The notes below the pieces were generated by a model, which ran no database searches, had not been told where the DNA came from, and saw nothing but the letters and a program-made list of their open reading frames with translations. From NCBI GenBank assembly GCA_001803565.1, contig MHDQ01000279.1:1-6452 (forward strand): 6,452 nucleotides of DNA, in the 5' to 3' direction. The DNA comes from Nitrospinae bacterium RIFCSPLOWO2_12_FULL_45_22. GTDB lineage: Bacteria; 2-12-FULL-45-22. A program made the translations under genes and the position numbers. This document shows, piece after piece, positions 7 through 6,452 of this stretch (position 1 is its first letter; each line of letters begins with the position of its first letter).

Positions 7-18
7 TGTTTATGACCT
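7..18 (+). repeat. IS left terminal inverted repeat (IRL)
   Basis: TGTTTATGACCT is the exact reverse complement of 1489-1500. Inward of the first 12 bases the similarity between the two ends drops to scattered matches. Confidence 0.9.
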
Positions 19-69
19 CCTGGTACAAACTCAATTATTTTGACACTATGATTAGGTCATGGGTTATAC

Positions 70-98
70 CCCATTATTCGTAGAATAATGGGCGTTTT
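70..98 (+). terminator. Terminator-like hairpin inside the IS left end
   Basis: A 9-bp perfect stem (CCCATTATT at 70-78 with AATAATGGG at 84-92) closes a 5-nt loop and is followed by CG and TTTT (95-98). It lies between the IS left tip and orfA, where it could stop transcription entering from outside and so limit transposase expression. The stem is AT-rich and the U tract is short, so termination may be partial. Role inferred from position and shape. Confidence 0.5.
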
Positions 99-125
99 GA
101 CAGTTTACCTGGCCTCCTCTATTGA
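97..125 (+). promoter_or_regulatory. Weak candidate promoter for the IS transposase genes
   Basis: A perfect TTGACA (97-102) lies directly after the terminator-like hairpin and about 57 bp before the orfA start. With a 17-bp spacer the -10 position reads TATTGA (120-125), a weak match. A second TTGACA at 40-45 lies before the hairpin and has only TATACC (65-70) with a 19-bp spacer. The post-hairpin box is the better placed of the two, but neither is convincing. Confidence 0.25.
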
Positions 126-158
126 GGTATTATTAACCCCTTGGGAAAGGAGGCCGCC

Positions 159-422
159 ATGTCAGCAAAGAATCTTAAACCAGAAGAAAAGCTCCAAATT
201 GTCCTGGAAGGTATCAGAGAGGGTAATATTGCGGCTCTCTGCCGCCGCCATGCCATTCATCCTTCTGATTACCACCGGTGGAAAGAGCAACTTTTTAAAA
301 AAGCTAAAGAGGTCTTCAACAATTCTAAAATCAAGAAAGACCCTGAATTAGAACGAATCCAGAAAGAAAAGGAGAGGTTAGAGCGAACCCTCTTGGACTT
401 AACCTGTGAGCTCCAGCTTTAA
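159..422 (+). CDS. IS3-family transposase OrfA (helix-turn-helix protein)
   Basis: This 87-aa protein has the usual length and plan of an IS3 OrfA. Residues about 6-45 form a helix-turn-helix (EEKLQIVLEGI, then AALCRRHAIHPSDYHRW), expected to bind the terminal inverted repeats. Residues about 60-87 are a charged, leucine-rich coiled coil (ELERIQKEKERLERTLLDL) that would mediate multimerisation. The ATG at 159 is chosen because a strong Shine-Dalgarno, AAAGGAGG at 146-153, sits 5 nt upstream; an in-frame TTG at 141 would lie before that site. The TAA stop (420-422) overlaps the start of an A9 run (421-429). The orfB frame opens at 410, so the two frames overlap by only a few codons. In family members OrfA either acts alone as a regulator or is fused to OrfB by -1 frameshifting. 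Confidence 0.88.
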   Translation: MSAKNLKPEEKLQIVLEGIREGNIAALCRRHAIHPSDYHRWKEQLFKKAKEVFNNSKIKKDPELERIQKEKERLERTLLDLTCELQL

Positions 423-496
423 AAAAAAAGAGTGGACTAGGGCTCACTGGAGAGGTAAAGGGTAACCGCTTAACCCCAGAGATAAAGCTTGAGCTG

Positions 497-1474
497 ATGG
501 AACTGATAGCTTCTCTTCCCTGGCCAGGTAACAAGAGTTGCCGGGTATTGAAGTTAAAACGGGGCCGATATTGGCGATGGAAGAATAGATATGATGGGAC
601 TCTGTCTTCTTTGGAGGACAGGGCCCCTATCGCCCAGATTCGTCCCCATGCCCTTTTACCAGAGGAAAGGCAAGAGATCATCTGCTTTGCCTTAGATAAC
701 CCTAAAGAAAGACATAGGAAACTAAGCTTTCTCATGATTGATCAGGATATCGGCTATTTCAGCCCCTCTACGGCTTACCAGGTCTTAAAGAAGGGGGGGG
801 CCAAACCCTGGGTATCTCTTAAAAAGCCTATGAGAAGACAAGACATTGAAGTTACAGGCCCTAACCAGGTCTGGTACATAGATATTACCTATCTTAAGGT
901 CAACGGGAGAAATTGGTATCTCATACCGGTTCTGGATAAATACTCTCGATTGATAGTGTACTGGGAACTCTGTTGGACGATGACTGCTCATGATGTTAAA
1001 CGGATAGTAGACTTTGCCCTGGAAAAGGAAGGGCTTCATCTCCAGGAACAAAAGCCTAAGATCATCAGCGATAATGGTACCCAGATGGTAGCCAAAAGCT
1101 TCAAAAAATTCCTTAAAGACCTGGGGATTAAACATATCCGTATCGCCTATCGCCACCCTGAAAGTCAAGGGCGGATCGAGGTCTTCTTTAAGACCTTAAA
1201 ATACGAATGCTTCTATCATGGGGAATACCAAAATGCTCATGAAGCCCATAGGGACATAGAAGCCTTCATTCACTATTATAACTACCAAAGATTACATCAG
1301 GGAATAGGTTTTGTTACCCCTTATCAAAAACATATTGGCCGGGCTGATGCTATAATTGCAGCTAGAAAGGCCAAACTCGCCCTGGCCAAAGAATTACGGA
1401 AAGCCCTCAATAGGGGAGAAAAGGTTAAAGCGAACCCCATGCCAGAGATGGTCGGTCATAGTGTCTTAATTTAA
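497..1474 (+). CDS. IS3-family transposase OrfB (DDE integrase core)
   Basis: The protein (325 aa from ATG 497) catalyses strand cleavage and transfer of the IS. Numbered from that ATG, the rve integrase core runs from about residue 118 to 280. Its catalytic triad is D129 (VWYIDITYL), D192 (ISDNGTQM) and E228 (QGRIEVFFKTLK), with exactly 35 residues between the last two and a lysine 7 after the glutamate, the IS3/retroviral signature. A helix-turn-helix-like region (residues about 73-97, ending SPSTAYQVLK) precedes it. The frame is open from 410, and a probable helix (LTPEIKLELMELI) starts upstream of ATG 497, which itself has no good Shine-Dalgarno. The functional product is therefore probably meant to be an OrfA-OrfB fusion of about 438 aa in the -1 frame, joined near 417-421. 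I see no standard slippery heptamer in the right frame there. Confidence 0.88.
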   Translation: MELIASLPWPGNKSCRVLKLKRGRYWRWKNRYDGTLSSLEDRAPIAQIRPHALLPEERQEIICFALDNPKERHRKLSFLMIDQDIGYFSPSTAYQVLKKGGAKPWVSLKKPMRRQDIEVTGPNQVWYIDITYLKVNGRNWYLIPVLDKYSRLIVYWELCWTMTAHDVKRIVDFALEKEGLHLQEQKPKIISDNGTQMVAKSFKKFLKDLGIKHIRIAYRHPESQGRIEVFFKTLKYECFYHGEYQNAHEAHRDIEAFIHYYNYQRLHQGIGFVTPYQKHIGRADAIIAARKAKLALAKELRKALNRGEKVKANPMPEMVGHSVLI

Positions 1475-1488
1475 AATTTTGGTTGAAA

Positions 1489-1500
1489 AGGTCATAAACA
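1489..1500 (-). repeat. IS right terminal inverted repeat (IRR)
   Basis: AGGTCATAAACA pairs perfectly with the left end at 7-18 and ends in CA. The next base, 1501, is the A of an ATG in the flanking cassette DNA. Confidence 0.9.
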
Positions 1501-1664: not shown

Positions 1665-1730
1665 ACCTAACTCGGCGCTCCACACGGACGCGGCAAAAAG
1701 CGCCGCACCGGTGAGCTTGGTGCGTTAGAT
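1665..1730 (+). other. Integron attC recombination site 1 (66 bp)
   Basis: The site has attC architecture on the + strand. R'' is ACCTAAC (1665-1671, fits RYYYAAC) and R' is GTTAGAT (1724-1730, fits GTTRRRY). L'' is GCTCCAC (1677-1683) and pairs with L' GTGAGC (1711-1716), leaving one extra C in the left arm, equal to the extrahelical G of the folded bottom strand. The unpaired spacers are 5 nt (1672-1676) and 7 nt (1717-1723). The inner stem continues with CGG/CCG (1685-1687 with 1708-1710) and GCGGC/GCCGC (1690-1694 with 1702-1706), capped by an A-rich loop. Extra-base placement and spacer lengths both give + orientation. In this family the integrase recombines the folded bottom strand between G and TT of R'. 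The stop codon of the neighbouring DUF3800 gene lies in R'. Confidence 0.85.
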
Positions 1731-2483
1731 TTTCCTGGAAACTTTTGTTGGCGGCACATAGGGAAGACCAGACAACAAATCCTGTTTTCTGAAATACCGA
1801 CAATGCTCTGGATGATTCACCATTCCTCGCAAGAGAGCCGCAAACGATTTTCGTGGTGCCCGGGGTTGCCCCTCAAGAAGCACCCGTGCTTCCTTGTACG
1901 CCTCATACGCAAGAATGTCGGTAGCTTGCAAGGGGCTGAAATACCTTTTATCGGTAAAACTCAACCCTACCCATCTATAGCGATCCTGACGAGCGGGATC
2001 TTTTTTGATTTGATCCGCGAGTTTTAATAGTTCCCCCTTATGAAGCGCCCCATCCTCAAATATATAACCAATAGGCTCCCGGTGTCCAACCTTATCAGCC
2101 CATGCAGCAATCGCCTGAAGGCACATGAGAGCACAGAATGCATATGCATTCTGTGGTGCCCCAGGATCACGTTGCCACAATGCTGCTTCCTTGTAGTCCT
2201 TAACCCCAACTGCCGCAACGACCGGAATTGTTATCCTTCTCTTAATAATTTCAAGGAACTTTTTGAGCCTCTCTATTCGCTCATCTTCTTTCCAATCTTT
2301 GAACTGTTTCTGCCGGTTCTCGTAATCCACCATATGGAAGAAAGAGATACCTGTCTGCTTCAGGGCCTTATCCCATTCTGACTGTAGACGAGCCCACTGC
2401 TTATCGGGGGCAAGAAACCCTGCCACCACAACGACCGGAGAATCCCTATGCACTCCACTCTCATCGAAGTAGGCTCCGAACAT
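1725..2483 (-). CDS. DUF3800 domain protein (cassette cargo)
   Basis: Recognised as DUF3800 by an N-terminal YFDESG motif (residues 5-10), a central IGYIFEDG (138-145) and a C-terminal SPLQATDILAYEAYK (183-197). D7, E143 or D144, and D189 are the candidate acidic metal-binding residues of the RNase H-like fold predicted for this family. The biochemical function is unproven; a nuclease-type role is inference. I chose ATG 2483 (252 aa) because family members usually begin a few residues before Y-x-D-E-S-G. In-frame ATG 2531 and GTG 2540 would add 16 or 19 residues, and none of the three has a clear Shine-Dalgarno. The TAA stop (1725-1727) is made of the first three bases inside the cassette boundary, so it travels with the cassette. 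The gene is inverted relative to both attC sites but points the same way as the operon to the right. Confidence 0.85.
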   Translation of the reverse strand: MFGAYFDESGVHRDSPVVVVAGFLAPDKQWARLQSEWDKALKQTGISFFHMVDYENRQKQFKDWKEDERIERLKKFLEIIKRRITIPVVAAVGVKDYKEAALWQRDPGAPQNAYAFCALMCLQAIAAWADKVGHREPIGYIFEDGALHKGELLKLADQIKKDPARQDRYRWVGLSFTDKRYFSPLQATDILAYEAYKEARVLLEGQPRAPRKSFAALLRGMVNHPEHCRYFRKQDLLSGLPYVPPTKVSRKI

Positions 2484-2622
2484 GACCAGAATCTTCTCGC
2501 ACACCTTATGCGGCAAGACAAGACTCGTCATCTCGCGCACGGAAACATGCCAACCGAGGGGCAGGAAATCTAACCATCGGCTGGAGACCGACGTTGCTTC
2601 GCAGCGCGGCTCAGCCGAGGCG
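1725..2622 (+). mobile_element. Complete integron gene cassette with an inverted gene
   Basis: The unit runs from the crossover point of the first attC (after G1724) to that of the second (G2622), about 898 bp, a usual cassette size. It contains one recognisable gene, DUF3800, on the minus strand, opposite to the attC orientation, filling about 85% of the cassette. The region looks richer in GC than the operon to its right, in line with separate origin. Because the gene is backward it could not be expressed from an upstream cassette promoter (Pc). It would need its own promoter or read-through from the minus-strand operon at 2679-5978. No integron integrase gene is in the window. Confidence 0.75.
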
Positions 2623-2628
2623 TTACTG
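2568..2628 (+). other. Integron attC recombination site 2 (61 bp, array end)
   Basis: R'' is ATCTAAC (2568-2574, fits RYYYAAC). A 6-nt spacer follows, then L'' CTGGAGACCG (2581-2590), which pairs with L' CGGCTCAG (2607-2614) leaving G2584 and A2587 unpaired. The tip is a 6-bp stem, CGTTGC/GCAGCG (2592-2597 with 2601-2606), with a TTC loop. The right spacer is 7 nt (2615-2621). The 6- and 7-nt spacers and the run CCGACG..GCTTCGC..GCGCGGCT closely resemble the attC sites of aadA cassettes as I remember them. R' is GTTACTG (2622-2628): the GTTA core is kept but the last bases do not fit GTTRRRY. That is expected if this is the last site of the array, since the bases after the crossover then belong to the original insertion site. 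Confidence 0.8.
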
Positions 2629-2678: not shown

Positions 2679-3353
2679 TCAAAGCCCCAGCTCTTCTCCT
2701 ACCAGAAAGACAGTGATTTGTGTAGCCATGGGTCTTTTATGCAGGGTCACAAATATGTTGCAGATACGGGCTGGGGAATTGCAATCCACACAAACCCCGG
2801 TCTCTGCACAGGGGGTAGGAACAGGTATGCGTTTGGCATCTGTTGGAGCCGCATAATGTCTTACCCTCCTGACTGCCTCATCTAAATCCTCTACGATCTT
2901 GTTATATCCAGCTACCACTATGACTTGTTGGGGGCCAAAAAACATTGCTCCTACCCGATTACCATTACCATCAATATTGAACAGTTGCCCTTTTTCGGTA
3001 ACGGCATTAGTCCCACTAAGGAATAGATCACAGGAATAAATTTCCCGCATAATAGGCAGCATCTTGGCCATGGCGGTCATCAGGTCTGTCTCCGTTTCCA
3101 GAACCTTTGTTGGGTTCAAGAAGGTAATATCTTCCCGGCGATCGAGTCTTTCGATCAATCCAATTTCCTCCAGGGTCAAAGAACCACCTACACCAACCTT
3201 GGAACCGGCTGGTATTAGCTTGAGGATCTCTTCACAGGCATCCTTTGCTGCTGGGTAATATCTGGCCCCAAAACCATTCTTTTCTAAAGCAGATATTGTC
3301 CGTTTAATCCGTTCCCCTAGATACCAATCCTTTAATTCTTTTGATGTTTGCAT
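2679..3353 (-). CDS. LUD-domain protein (lactate-utilization type)
   Basis: This 224-aa protein belongs to the LUD family (LutB/LutC/YkgG type, formerly DUF162). Evidence is a glycine-rich VGVGGSLTLEEIG at residues 53-65 and the core block SGTNAVTEKGQLFNIDGN at 113-130, followed by GAMFFGPQQVIVVAG (135-149). The C-terminal segment carries four cysteines, C182, C188, C191 and C198 (CX5CX2CX6C), which could bind a metal or iron-sulfur cluster. Experimentally known relatives take part in lactate oxidation to pyruvate, but single-gene versions with this cysteine tail are common in anaerobes and mostly uncharacterised. The start is supported by AGGAGG (3360-3365) 6 nt upstream. Only 14 bp separate it from the upstream 441-aa dehydratase subunit, so the two are probably co-transcribed. 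The gene ends 50 bp from the second attC site. Confidence 0.88.
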   Translation of the reverse strand: MQTSKELKDWYLGERIKRTISALEKNGFGARYYPAAKDACEEILKLIPAGSKVGVGGSLTLEEIGLIERLDRREDITFLNPTKVLETETDLMTAMAKMLPIMREIYSCDLFLSGTNAVTEKGQLFNIDGNGNRVGAMFFGPQQVIVVAGYNKIVEDLDEAVRRVRHYAAPTDAKRIPVPTPCAETGVCVDCNSPARICNIFVTLHKRPMATQITVFLVGEELGL

Positions 3354-3367
3354 GATACGCCTCCTCT

Positions 3368-4693
3368 CTAATTAAGTTTCTTGGTTTCTTTGGATTCTCT
3401 TACAATCTCTAAAAATCCCTCCAGGTGTTCTTCTAGGGCGGCCCTGTTTTCTCCCGGCAAATCTGTATCAATGGTAGTGGTTGGGATGTTAAGCTCCATT
3501 CTTATATTATCAGTTATACACCGTGCTGTCTTGGCGATGTAGTTACAGCCAAAGGCACAGTCAAAGATACTGCCATCGGCCTTCATCTGTTTTGTTAGCC
3601 CAGTCACTAACTTCGCCCTCTGGGTCATGGGCTGAGTAAAGGGTATGGAAAGATCCCTCTTGGCTAAGGCTATAAATGGCTCCTCATCCTCATTCACATC
3701 GGCACGGAATAGGTTCCAGACGCATTCCAATCCAGCCAGAGTACCACCCAGGTCTTCCAAAAGGTTATATATTTTTATCTCAGAAGTAGTTATCCCAGAG
3801 AAAAATATCCTCACAGCATCATCTCTTATGCCCGGGCCTTTTATCCTCTTCGTTGCCCGCTCCCTTATCTCCATCAATATTGTATCAAGGGTGTCATTGG
3901 CCGCTACAGGATCGCTTTGCCAATCATCAACCAAGACCATGGTGAGGATAAAGTCCAGGGCAGATATGGGGGAAGGGTCTAACAATAAAAAGTCCATTAG
4001 CTCTCTGATTTTTTTTCTCATACGATTATGAAACCTTATGGACTCCATCAAATCGGCCTTTTCGACCTTTTTCTTGGTTAGTCTTTCCATAGTCTTTACA
4101 AAGGTTTGTAACTCACCGACCATATAGTCCAGCGCATTGTCCTCTTTGCCTTCCAGATGGGGGAAGAAGGGCTGGTCCAGGAAATGGACCTCAGGGATGA
4201 TGTCAGACAAGTTTTCACCATTATAAGGAGAATTGGTACACCAGGGGCCAACAAAGGTATAATAGGCATCTACCGGGACGAGCTGGCGGCGTATAGCAGC
4301 ATTACCTACGGCTTGCCAGGCACAGGCCTCCGGCGAGAGTTGCTCCCGACCTTCGGTAGCTAAGCTATAATCTCTTGTGTAAATCAGGTGGGCCATAGAG
4401 ATAAAAAAGGGGTCTACCGGTATAACCCCGCAACCATAATAAATATCTGTAGGATTGGCTGGGTACTTCACAACTATGGTTTTACCTTGATTATGGGCTT
4501 CCTTGAGCCGCTCCAACTGGGTAAGGGAAAGGTAAGCCAATTTTCTTATTCCGACCAGTTCCATATCTATCCGCAGATCGGCCAGACCAGGAAAGTGCCT
4601 GGGGGCTTCCTGCATTAAATACTCACCGATCTCTGCCATAGGGATAAATCCACCATTCCCCATACTTAATCCTTCTAATAATTTCTCAGACAT
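3368..4693 (-). CDS. 2-hydroxyacyl-CoA dehydratase / benzoyl-CoA reductase-type subunit (441 aa)
   Basis: This is a member of the 2-hydroxyacyl-CoA dehydratase D-component family (PF06050), cytoplasmic iron-sulfur subunits that take single electrons from an ATP-driven activator and reduce acyl-CoA substrates. The family pattern TDIYYGCGVIPVDPF lies at residues 83-97. Candidate [4Fe-4S] ligands are C124 (SPEACAW), C152 (VGPWCTN) and C379 or C383 (FDCAFGCNY). The first ligand position of the partner subunit is not a cysteine here. The C-terminal ETD-like stretch TIDTDLPGENRAALEEHLEGFLE (407-429) matches the usual family end. Length and cysteine spacing remind me of BcrB/BadE/BzdO-type subunits, but substrate cannot be assigned. 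AGGAGG (4701-4706) 7 nt upstream fixes the start. It lies 130 bp downstream of a second family member, and its stop is 14 bp from the LUD gene. Confidence 0.85.
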   Translation of the reverse strand: MSEKLLEGLSMGNGGFIPMAEIGEYLMQEAPRHFPGLADLRIDMELVGIRKLAYLSLTQLERLKEAHNQGKTIVVKYPANPTDIYYGCGVIPVDPFFISMAHLIYTRDYSLATEGREQLSPEACAWQAVGNAAIRRQLVPVDAYYTFVGPWCTNSPYNGENLSDIIPEVHFLDQPFFPHLEGKEDNALDYMVGELQTFVKTMERLTKKKVEKADLMESIRFHNRMRKKIRELMDFLLLDPSPISALDFILTMVLVDDWQSDPVAANDTLDTILMEIRERATKRIKGPGIRDDAVRIFFSGITTSEIKIYNLLEDLGGTLAGLECVWNLFRADVNEDEEPFIALAKRDLSIPFTQPMTQRAKLVTGLTKQMKADGSIFDCAFGCNYIAKTARCITDNIRMELNIPTTTIDTDLPGENRAALEEHLEGFLEIVRESKETKKLN

Positions 4694-4823: not shown

Positions 4824-5978
4824 TTATTGAGTGCTGTATTTCTGGCCCTGAAGTAGTTCTATAAATGCCTCCATCCTTGTCCTGATCTGGCCCAGGCTAA
4901 TAGAAGAATAATCTGAATTTATATGGAGCAGGGGGATACCCATCTGGTTGAGCCATTTGCGATCGTCTTCTACCTTAAATGCATAGGCATCGCAGAACCT
5001 TAAGGTATAGGAAATAACCCCAGCAACCCGGTATTGCTTGATCAATTCCTTTATATGTTCTCTGCGAGCATTGCCTTCTCTTCGGACATCGGGCAGGGTA
5101 GCGCATGGAATCTTTCCAAGATACCTACGAGCTAGCCCTTCTAGAGTAGGTTCTTCCACATCGTTCCAGAACCATCGGGTGCCGGTGCAAAGCTCATCTA
5201 TCACGATATTTACCCCGAGTTCTTTAACAAGGTCAAGGATCTTCCTATCCCCGGATGCCAGGATACTTCCTGCTATAAGGAGCCTCGGCCCTCTTCTATT
5301 ACCCTTTCTTCGTTCCCTGATTAATGCCAATTCCTCTAGGACAGTGTCAAGGATTTTAAGGTATTTCTGGCGGTCCAATACAAATCCAGCCTCAACTATC
5401 TCATGTGCCTCCTCCCAAGAGACCGGTGGGAACTCTTCTTTAAGGAAGTTATATATAGCCCTTAACTTTTGCCGGATAGAATTATAGAGGGAAATAGAGT
5501 TTTTTAAGTCTTCCTCGGTTATCTTCTTATCAGCTATTTTTTCTATTCTTTCGCGAAAATCTTCCAACTCTCTTAGATAATACGCTAGTGCCTGGTTCTC
5601 TCCAAACTTCCTGGGTAGCCCTATGGGGATGACTTGGACCCCAAAATATTTTTCTAGGGTTTCTAGAACCCATTCCATCTGGACACAGGCGGGTGATTCC
5701 ACAATATAGTTGGTAGCCATAAAAAATGGGTCTTTACCACTGGCACGATAGCCTATGCACGATTTAGCATAGGAGCAGGAATTGGGGGTTATATATTCAC
5801 CACCACTTATCTCAGGCTCTTTTTCTCCGCCCCACATTAGCCGTATAGGGCTGAGCCCGGCGGCATGGATCAGCTCCTCAGGGACATAATTACAAAAATA
5901 GCCTATAGGGGTGCTCCATCTCAACTCTTCGGGTCTGGCTGCAGAGGCCCTTTTAATTTCTTCTAATCCTTTGATCAT
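4824..5978 (-). CDS. 2-hydroxyacyl-CoA dehydratase / benzoyl-CoA reductase-type subunit (384 aa)
   Basis: This is a second PF06050 subunit, presumably the partner of the 441-aa protein downstream. The N-terminal family signature GYFCNYVPEELIHAAGLSP (residues 26-44) is intact and includes C29. Further conserved cysteines are C68 and C74 (NSCSYAKSC), C98 (SPACVQ) and C329 (RFCDAY). The end of the protein, INSDYSSISLGQIRTRMEAFIELL (353-376), is the classic D-component C-terminal motif. The length matches HgdB or BcrC-type subunits (about 380 residues). Possible roles are dehydration of a 2-hydroxyacyl-CoA, ring reduction of an aromatic acyl-CoA, or an electron-transfer role as in double-cubane cluster proteins. 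Nothing visible decides among these. The start is supported by AAGGAG (5987-5992) 8 nt upstream. No activator ATPase gene adjoins it within the window. Confidence 0.87.
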   Translation of the reverse strand: MIKGLEEIKRASAARPEELRWSTPIGYFCNYVPEELIHAAGLSPIRLMWGGEKEPEISGGEYITPNSCSYAKSCIGYRASGKDPFFMATNYIVESPACVQMEWVLETLEKYFGVQVIPIGLPRKFGENQALAYYLRELEDFRERIEKIADKKITEEDLKNSISLYNSIRQKLRAIYNFLKEEFPPVSWEEAHEIVEAGFVLDRQKYLKILDTVLEELALIRERRKGNRRGPRLLIAGSILASGDRKILDLVKELGVNIVIDELCTGTRWFWNDVEEPTLEGLARRYLGKIPCATLPDVRREGNARREHIKELIKQYRVAGVISYTLRFCDAYAFKVEDDRKWLNQMGIPLLHINSDYSSISLGQIRTRMEAFIELLQGQKYSTQ

Positions 5979-6365: not shown

Positions 6366-6452
6366 TGTCAAGCCAAAATAGAAATGTCCTATTTTTACCA
6401 AAATAGAAATGTCCGGTTTTAAGGTACTGGAAGTATCCGTTCTCTCTCCTTT
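6366..6452 (+). mobile_element. Probable end of a second insertion sequence, running off the window
   Basis: From TGTCAAG (6366) the sequence carries two exact copies of the 17-mer CCAAAATAGAAATGTCC (6373-6389 and 6398-6414) with a 25-bp period, then GG and a T run. Multiple short terminal direct repeats inside a TGT tip are typical of IS21-like elements, and I associate this GGACATTTCTATTTTGG word with such ends, but the transposase is outside the window. The exact tip and the family are inference. Confidence 0.45.
6373..6414 (+). repeat. Two direct repeats of a 17-bp word
   Basis: The word CCAAAATAGAAATGTCC occurs at 6373-6389 and again at 6398-6414 without mismatch, separated by 8 bases (TATTTTTA). 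Probably transposase-binding repeats of the flanking IS end. Confidence 0.8.

What the first reader, a model, noticed from the sequence alone, without database searches (positions are those of the whole stretch)
1665..2628. Two attC sites reveal an integron cassette remnant without a visible integrase
Both sites show R''/R' core boxes, L''/L' boxes with unpaired extra bases in the left arm, 5-6 nt and 7 nt unpaired spacers and a stem-loop tip, and both have the same (+) orientation. Two independent sites at cassette spacing (crossover points 898 bp apart) make chance unlikely. Next to a catabolic operon of an anaerobe, this is either a cluster of attC sites lacking an integrase or the distal end of a chromosomal integron.
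Basis: partly seen in the sequence, partly recalled or inferred. Interest (0 to 1): 0.75.

Follow-up and report, generated by a model that had tools for sequence, protein, structure and literature searches.

The report
End of an integron cassette array
The two hairpin sites are genuine integron recombination sites (attC) bounding one movable gene cassette, in a bacterium that carries dozens more such sites and two full-length integron integrase genes elsewhere in its genome, so this is a well-supported but ordinary piece of a known gene-capture system.

Summary
A covariance model trained only on attC sites from other genomes finds both sites and nothing else in the window: 1665-1730 (38.2 bits, E 5e-7) and 2568-2629 (25.0 bits, E 3e-4). 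A second model, trained on this genome's other attC sites with the window held out, gives 41.6 and 35.3 bits, significant genome-wide (5.6e-7 and 2.8e-5). Both are on the + strand and bound one complete 898-bp cassette (1725-2622). A truncated older cassette lies upstream, cut by an IS3-like element (7-1500) at the contig edge. The cassette gene, DUF3800, is antisense to the attC sites, which is unusual here; its stop codon is the TTA of the first R' box. To the right is a non-cassette LUD/HGD-D operon, so this is the distal end of an array. The window is one whole short contig. The same genome has two full-length integron integrases, about nine intI fragments and about 64 attC sites on 31 contigs, so 'no integrase' applies only to this contig. 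Whether it is a true CALIN or an assembly-cut integron cannot be decided. It is a new member of a known kind; interest is modest.

The parts
7..1500 (+). IS3-like insertion sequence: terminal inverted repeats TGTTTATGACC (7-17) and GGTCATAAACA (1490-1500), orfA 141-422 (HTH_Tnp_1), orfB 497-1474 (rve). It truncates the upstream cassette. No target-site duplication seen (left flank gtataa, right flank atgcag).
   Evidence: Pfam, NCBIfam (IS3 just under, IS481 well under curated cut-off), sequence; single copy in the genome
1501..1724 (+). 3' remnant of a truncated upstream cassette (164 bp plus its attC up to the crossover)
   Evidence: Lies between the IS end and attC1; no relative found among held loci
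1665..1730 (+). attC site 1: R'' 1665-1671, R' 1724-1730, crossover between G1724 and T1725
   Evidence: R1 38.2 bits E 4.9e-7; R2 41.6 bits E 9.8e-10; canonical bottom-strand fold
1725..2622 (+). One complete gene cassette, 898 bp, from the crossover of attC1 to that of attC2
   Evidence: Positions of the two R' boxes
1725..2540 (-). DUF3800 gene, antisense to the attC sites; stop codon TAA = TTA 1725-1727 of the R' box of attC1; the likelier start is the ATG at 2483, the longest ORF starts with GTG at 2540
   Evidence: Pfam PF12686 E 8.7e-9, 36.7 bits over cut-off 21; only copy in the genome
2568..2628 (+). attC site 2, last of the array: R'' 2568-2574, R' 2622-2628 (GTTACTG, degenerate beyond GTTA)
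   Evidence: R1 25.0 bits E 2.8e-4; R2 35.3 bits E 5e-8
2679..3353 (-). LUD-domain gene with intact C-terminus; first non-cassette gene beyond the array, stop codon 50 bp from attC2
   Evidence: Pfam PF02589 E 1.3e-44; homologues align to the last residues
3368..5978 (-). Two HGD-D (2-hydroxyacyl-CoA dehydratase/benzoyl-CoA reductase-like) genes, 3368-4693 and 4824-5978, in an operon with the LUD gene; no attC among them
   Evidence: Pfam PF06050; no attC-model hit

Best explanation
This is the distal end of an integron cassette array: one truncated and one complete cassette, each closed by an attC site, lying next to an anaerobe's LUD/HGD-D operon. An integron integrase binds the folded bottom strand of each attC and recombines at G|TT of the R' box, so the 898-bp DUF3800 cassette could be cut out as a circle and inserted elsewhere. 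The bases after the last crossover (TTACTG) are then the edge of the receiving DNA. Shown: attC layout, orientation, cassette limits, and integrase genes in the same genome. Inferred: that one of those integrases still acts on these sites, and that the array was once joined to an intI/attI to its left, where an IS and the contig end now lie. The antisense DUF3800 gene cannot be read from an array promoter and would need its own promoter; its product is probably an RNase H-fold nuclease, as published for the domain.
For: Independent attC model: only the two sites score. Held-out genome-specific model: both significant genome-wide. The model is sound: L-stem covariation in its training set and 64 of 64 hits in 17 integron control loci on the expected strand. 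Two full-length IntI over the curated TIGR02249 cut-off in the same genome, with the R, H-x-x-R, H and Y residues present. C304 is a complete integron with at least six attC on the expected side of its intI. About 64 attC genome-wide; at a stricter setting 41 here against none in 43 of 59 comparison genomes. All 36 neighbouring attC pairs share orientation.
Against: No intI or attI on this contig. attC2 has a degenerate R' box and scores lower with the independent model (E 0.16 over the whole genome). The cassette gene is antisense, unlike nearly all other cassettes here. No test of recombination, and no relative close enough to show the site without cassettes.
Confidence: 0.9

Rival explanations
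1. A true CALIN: the array never had, or has permanently lost, its own integrase. Its cassettes were placed here, or are kept mobile, by an integrase encoded elsewhere, possibly through a non-classical target site in the chromosome (attG type; TTACTG being the target edge).
For: No intI on the contig; degenerate last R' box; intI genes elsewhere in the genome; many decayed intI fragments. Non-classical attG insertion of cassettes is described in the literature (Loot et al. 2024, cited in PMC12901181).
Against: The contig is cut 6 bp beyond an IS on the side where intI would lie. attC clusters of this genome lie near contig ends more often than chance, which points to broken arrays. The left junction, needed to recognise an attG insertion, is lost.
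Confidence: 0.3
2. The contig is mis-binned and belongs to another organism, so the integrases of the genome are irrelevant to it.
For: Assembly of 321 contigs, 85% complete; the window is a single short contig; DUF3800 and the IS occur only here.
Against: GC 45.5% lies in the range of the other attC contigs (41-50%). Reported contamination is 1.3%. LUD paralogues at 49% and 42% on other contigs. The attC sites score higher with a model made from the rest of the genome than with the general model.
Confidence: 0.07
3. The hairpins are something else: chance palindromes, terminators, or the structured RNAs reported next to DUF3800 genes (Rfam DUF3800-I, DUF3800-IX).
For: They flank a DUF3800 gene; fold energies are only mildly below shuffles.
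Against: No Rfam family matches either site even at E up to 5, although DUF3800 RNA families are in Rfam (PMC11701678). attC-specific scores are far above everything else in the window.
Confidence: 0.02

Closest known systems
[quoted passage not shown]
   Same: At least two attC sites in the same orientation at cassette spacing with no intI on the replicon fragment (definition: PMC9024848)
   Different: The contig is cut on the side where intI would be, so absence of intI cannot be established. The same paper warns that draft genomes yield spurious CALINs.
Sedentary chromosomal integrons with many cassettes (Vibrio, Xanthomonas)
   Same: Dozens of attC, toxin-antitoxin cassette beside one intI (C243: HigB/HTH), an IS element in the array
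   Different: attC sites vary strongly in sequence and length, several separate decayed intI loci, and assembly too broken to show one array
Complete integron on contig C304 of the same genome
   Same: Same kind of attC, same genome; both found by the same models
   Different: C304 carries a full-length intI (454 aa, with an N-terminal extension like the ~120-aa longer clade-15 IntI of PMC2426708) and mostly sense-strand cassette genes

Membership tests
attC recombination site | R'' (RYYYAAC) and R' (GTTRRRY) inverted core boxes | tested here: met
   Site 1 has 7/7 and 7/7; site 2 has 7/7 and 4/7 with the core GTTA kept
attC recombination site | L''/L' stem with extrahelical bases in the left arm, unpaired spacers and variable hairpin tip on the bottom strand | tested here: met
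   in site 2 part of the spacer can pair
attC recombination site | Significant match to an attC covariance model | tested here: met
   Own models R1 and R2; IntegronFinder's own model was not available
attC recombination site | Recombination by an integron integrase | not testable with these tools
   Needs an excision assay
CALIN | At least two attC close together | tested here: met
   Two sites, crossovers 898 bp apart
CALIN | No integron-integrase beside the cluster | tested here: inconclusive
   None on the contig, but the contig ends at an IS on the critical side; two full IntI elsewhere
Complete integron | intI and attI next to the attC array | tested here: not met
   No integrase of this family among the window's ORFs; the own-genome search places no IntI on C279
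IS3 family insertion sequence | orfA (HTH) and orfB (rve) with inverted repeats and a target duplication | tested here: inconclusive
   orfA, orfB and 11-bp inverted repeats present; curated IS3 cut-off narrowly missed by orfB alone (156 of 160 bits); no target duplication
DUF3800 (PF12686) | Pfam match over the curated cut-off | tested here: met
   36.7 bits over 21

The most novel reading that the evidence does not exclude
The genome belongs to a sparsely sampled lineage (among the held relatives one genome of its order, none other nearer than the domain) that has been colonised by integrons many times over. Its integrases in trans have placed cassettes at non-classical chromosomal sites such as the one beside this operon, and antisense cargo with its own promoter, such as DUF3800, is expressed there independently of an array promoter.
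Probability: 0.2. Interest if true: 0.5.

Novelty: new member of a known kind. Interest (0 to 1): 0.27.

Why it matters
It confirms by models a call made by eye from raw sequence, and adds an integron-rich genome from a poorly sampled anaerobic lineage, with cassettes beside a catabolic operon and an antisense DUF3800 cargo. No paper in the held library has both 'integron' and 'DUF3800'. For the integron field it is a further data point, not a surprise: 65 of 386 sampled genomes carry IntI-like genes.

Tried and rejected
Simple pattern and arm-pairing scores: too weak alone; the pattern with its control read backwards gave more control hits (32) than real hits (15). Folding energy as evidence: not discriminating. 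Rfam: no attC-like or DUF3800 RNA match. DUF3800 in PADLOC: no match; relatives: only distant ones on Bradyrhizobium plasmids, none in phages, viral contigs or the other 289 genomes searched, so no comparison of cassette context was possible. Empty-site test with the LUD gene: relatives too distant, 36-46% identity, outside the order. Joining the contig ends to other held contigs: no overlap found. Antisense ORF of the C156 cassette (L163, 162 aa): no Pfam match, probably spurious. Idea that the decayed intI copies are themselves cassettes: no attC found upstream of the C136 copy.

Full report
What was checked. The window is a whole contig (C279, 6452 bp) of a genome of 3.67 Mb in 321 contigs, 85% complete. 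Both proposed attC sites are in the sequence at the stated coordinates.

Are they more than chance? Rfam gives nothing at these sites, so I built an attC model. Seventy-one loci around relatives of the genome's own integron integrase were fetched from public genomes. Twenty-five attC sites from these other genomes were aligned and made into covariance model R1. The L stem of that alignment shows strong compensatory change; the sites had been picked partly for L-stem pairing, so this is a check of the model's structure and not independent proof. In 17 loci around integrases all 64 hits fell on the strand expected relative to intI. In the window, with filters off, R1 finds 1665-1730 (38.2 bits, E 4.9e-7) and 2568-2629 (25.0 bits, E 2.8e-4), then nothing above 6.8 bits. 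A second model R2, from 54 attC of this genome with the window left out, gives 41.6 and 35.3 bits (E 9.8e-10 and 5e-8) and E 5.6e-7 and 2.8e-5 over the whole genome. R2 was seeded by R1 hits, so the two models are not fully independent of each other, but neither contains the window. E-values from these short calibrations are rough.

Anatomy. Site 1 is canonical, and its bottom strand folds into the textbook shape without constraint. Site 2 has a good R'' and L stem but a degenerate R' (GTTACTG). Because recombination occurs between G and TT, the bases after the last crossover belong to the receiving DNA (established integron mechanism), so a degenerate box is unsurprising at the end of an array. 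Cassette: 1725-2622, 898 bp. Its gene, DUF3800, runs antisense and ends with the TTA that begins the cassette. Upstream lies a cassette remnant cut by an IS3-like element (7-1500). That element has 11-bp inverted repeats and no visible target duplication, and only 6 bp of flank remain on its left. Downstream, 50 bp away, is the stop codon of an intact LUD gene in an operon with two HGD-D genes, free of attC.

The genome. TIGR02249 finds two full-length integron integrases (C243, 467 bits; C304, 439 bits) and many fragments. At the protein level there are about nine further intI loci: C115, C136, C317, C287, C95, C106, C7, C17 and C248. C7, C17 and C248 lie near contig ends and may be cut by assembly. 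R2 lists 64 attC at E below 0.005 on 31 contigs. In 59 comparison genomes at a stricter setting 43 have none and the maximum is 9, against 41 here. C304 has its intI with at least six attC on the expected side. All 36 neighbouring attC pairs share orientation; the longest ORF is on the sense strand in 31 of 35 cassettes with an ORF, and the window's DUF3800 gene is the only antisense case with a recognised domain among those examined. Both full-length IntI keep the catalytic R, H-x-x-R, H and Y; C243 has G in place of a glutamate that the other three aligned integrases share (position 136), so its activity is uncertain.

CALIN or integron end? attC clusters of this genome lie within 2 kb of a contig end in 22 of 27 contigs, which only 33 of 5000 random placements reach. 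Short contigs limit the power, but the test keeps contig lengths and cluster spans. This favours arrays broken in assembly, and IntegronFinder's authors warn of the same effect in drafts (PMC9024848). Non-classical attG insertion is possible but its left junction is lost.

Cargo. DUF3800 occurs once in the genome and has no close relative in the other 289 genomes searched; it is not in PADLOC. Published AlphaFold analysis gives DUF3800 an RNase H fold (PMC10910872). Cassette genes are generally promoterless and read from Pc (PMC11014356, abstract), so an antisense gene needs its own promoter; the consensus scan of the region is at the shuffle level and shows nothing upstream of the likely start.

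How ordinary is it? Integrons with several intI and many pseudogenes are known: 22% of intI-bearing genomes have more than one (PMC9024848), and about one third of intI were pseudogenes in an earlier survey (PMC2426708). Of 386 sampled genomes, 65 have IntI-like genes. The finding is therefore real and well described by existing concepts. The richness of this genome in integron remnants is the only point above routine.

Noticed in passing
L037:15043-15557 (C136) and L039:8631-9142 (C317); part in L043:8373-8510 (C287): Two decayed intI copies share the same internal deletion (residues about 128-270 missing) at 83% DNA identity over 596 bp; a third copy keeps the C-terminal end. A broken intI seems to have been duplicated.
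   Followed up: partly
L037:15043-19900 (C136): The intI remnant and the attC array downstream of it point the same way, the reverse of the classical arrangement; cassettes there encode an Mrr-type restriction endonuclease and a ParA-like ATPase.
   Followed up: partly
L033:3426-4164 (C243): A HigB-like toxin and HTH antitoxin gene pair follows the attC beside a full-length intI, as in sedentary chromosomal integrons.
   Followed up: no
L032:4451-5815 (C304): IntI with an N-terminal extension (454 aa), reminiscent of the longer clade-15 integrases of PMC2426708.
   Followed up: no
window 6373-6420: Two direct copies of CCAAAATAGAAATGTCC(T/G)(A/G)TTTT near the right contig end, possibly the edge of another mobile element.
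   Followed up: no
L162:2122-2654 (C228) with L099; L042:604-1090 (C17) with L117: Cassette-sized stretches of this genome match DNA in integron loci of Syntrophaceae and Desulfobacteraceae at about 72%, which suggests shared cassettes.
   Followed up: no
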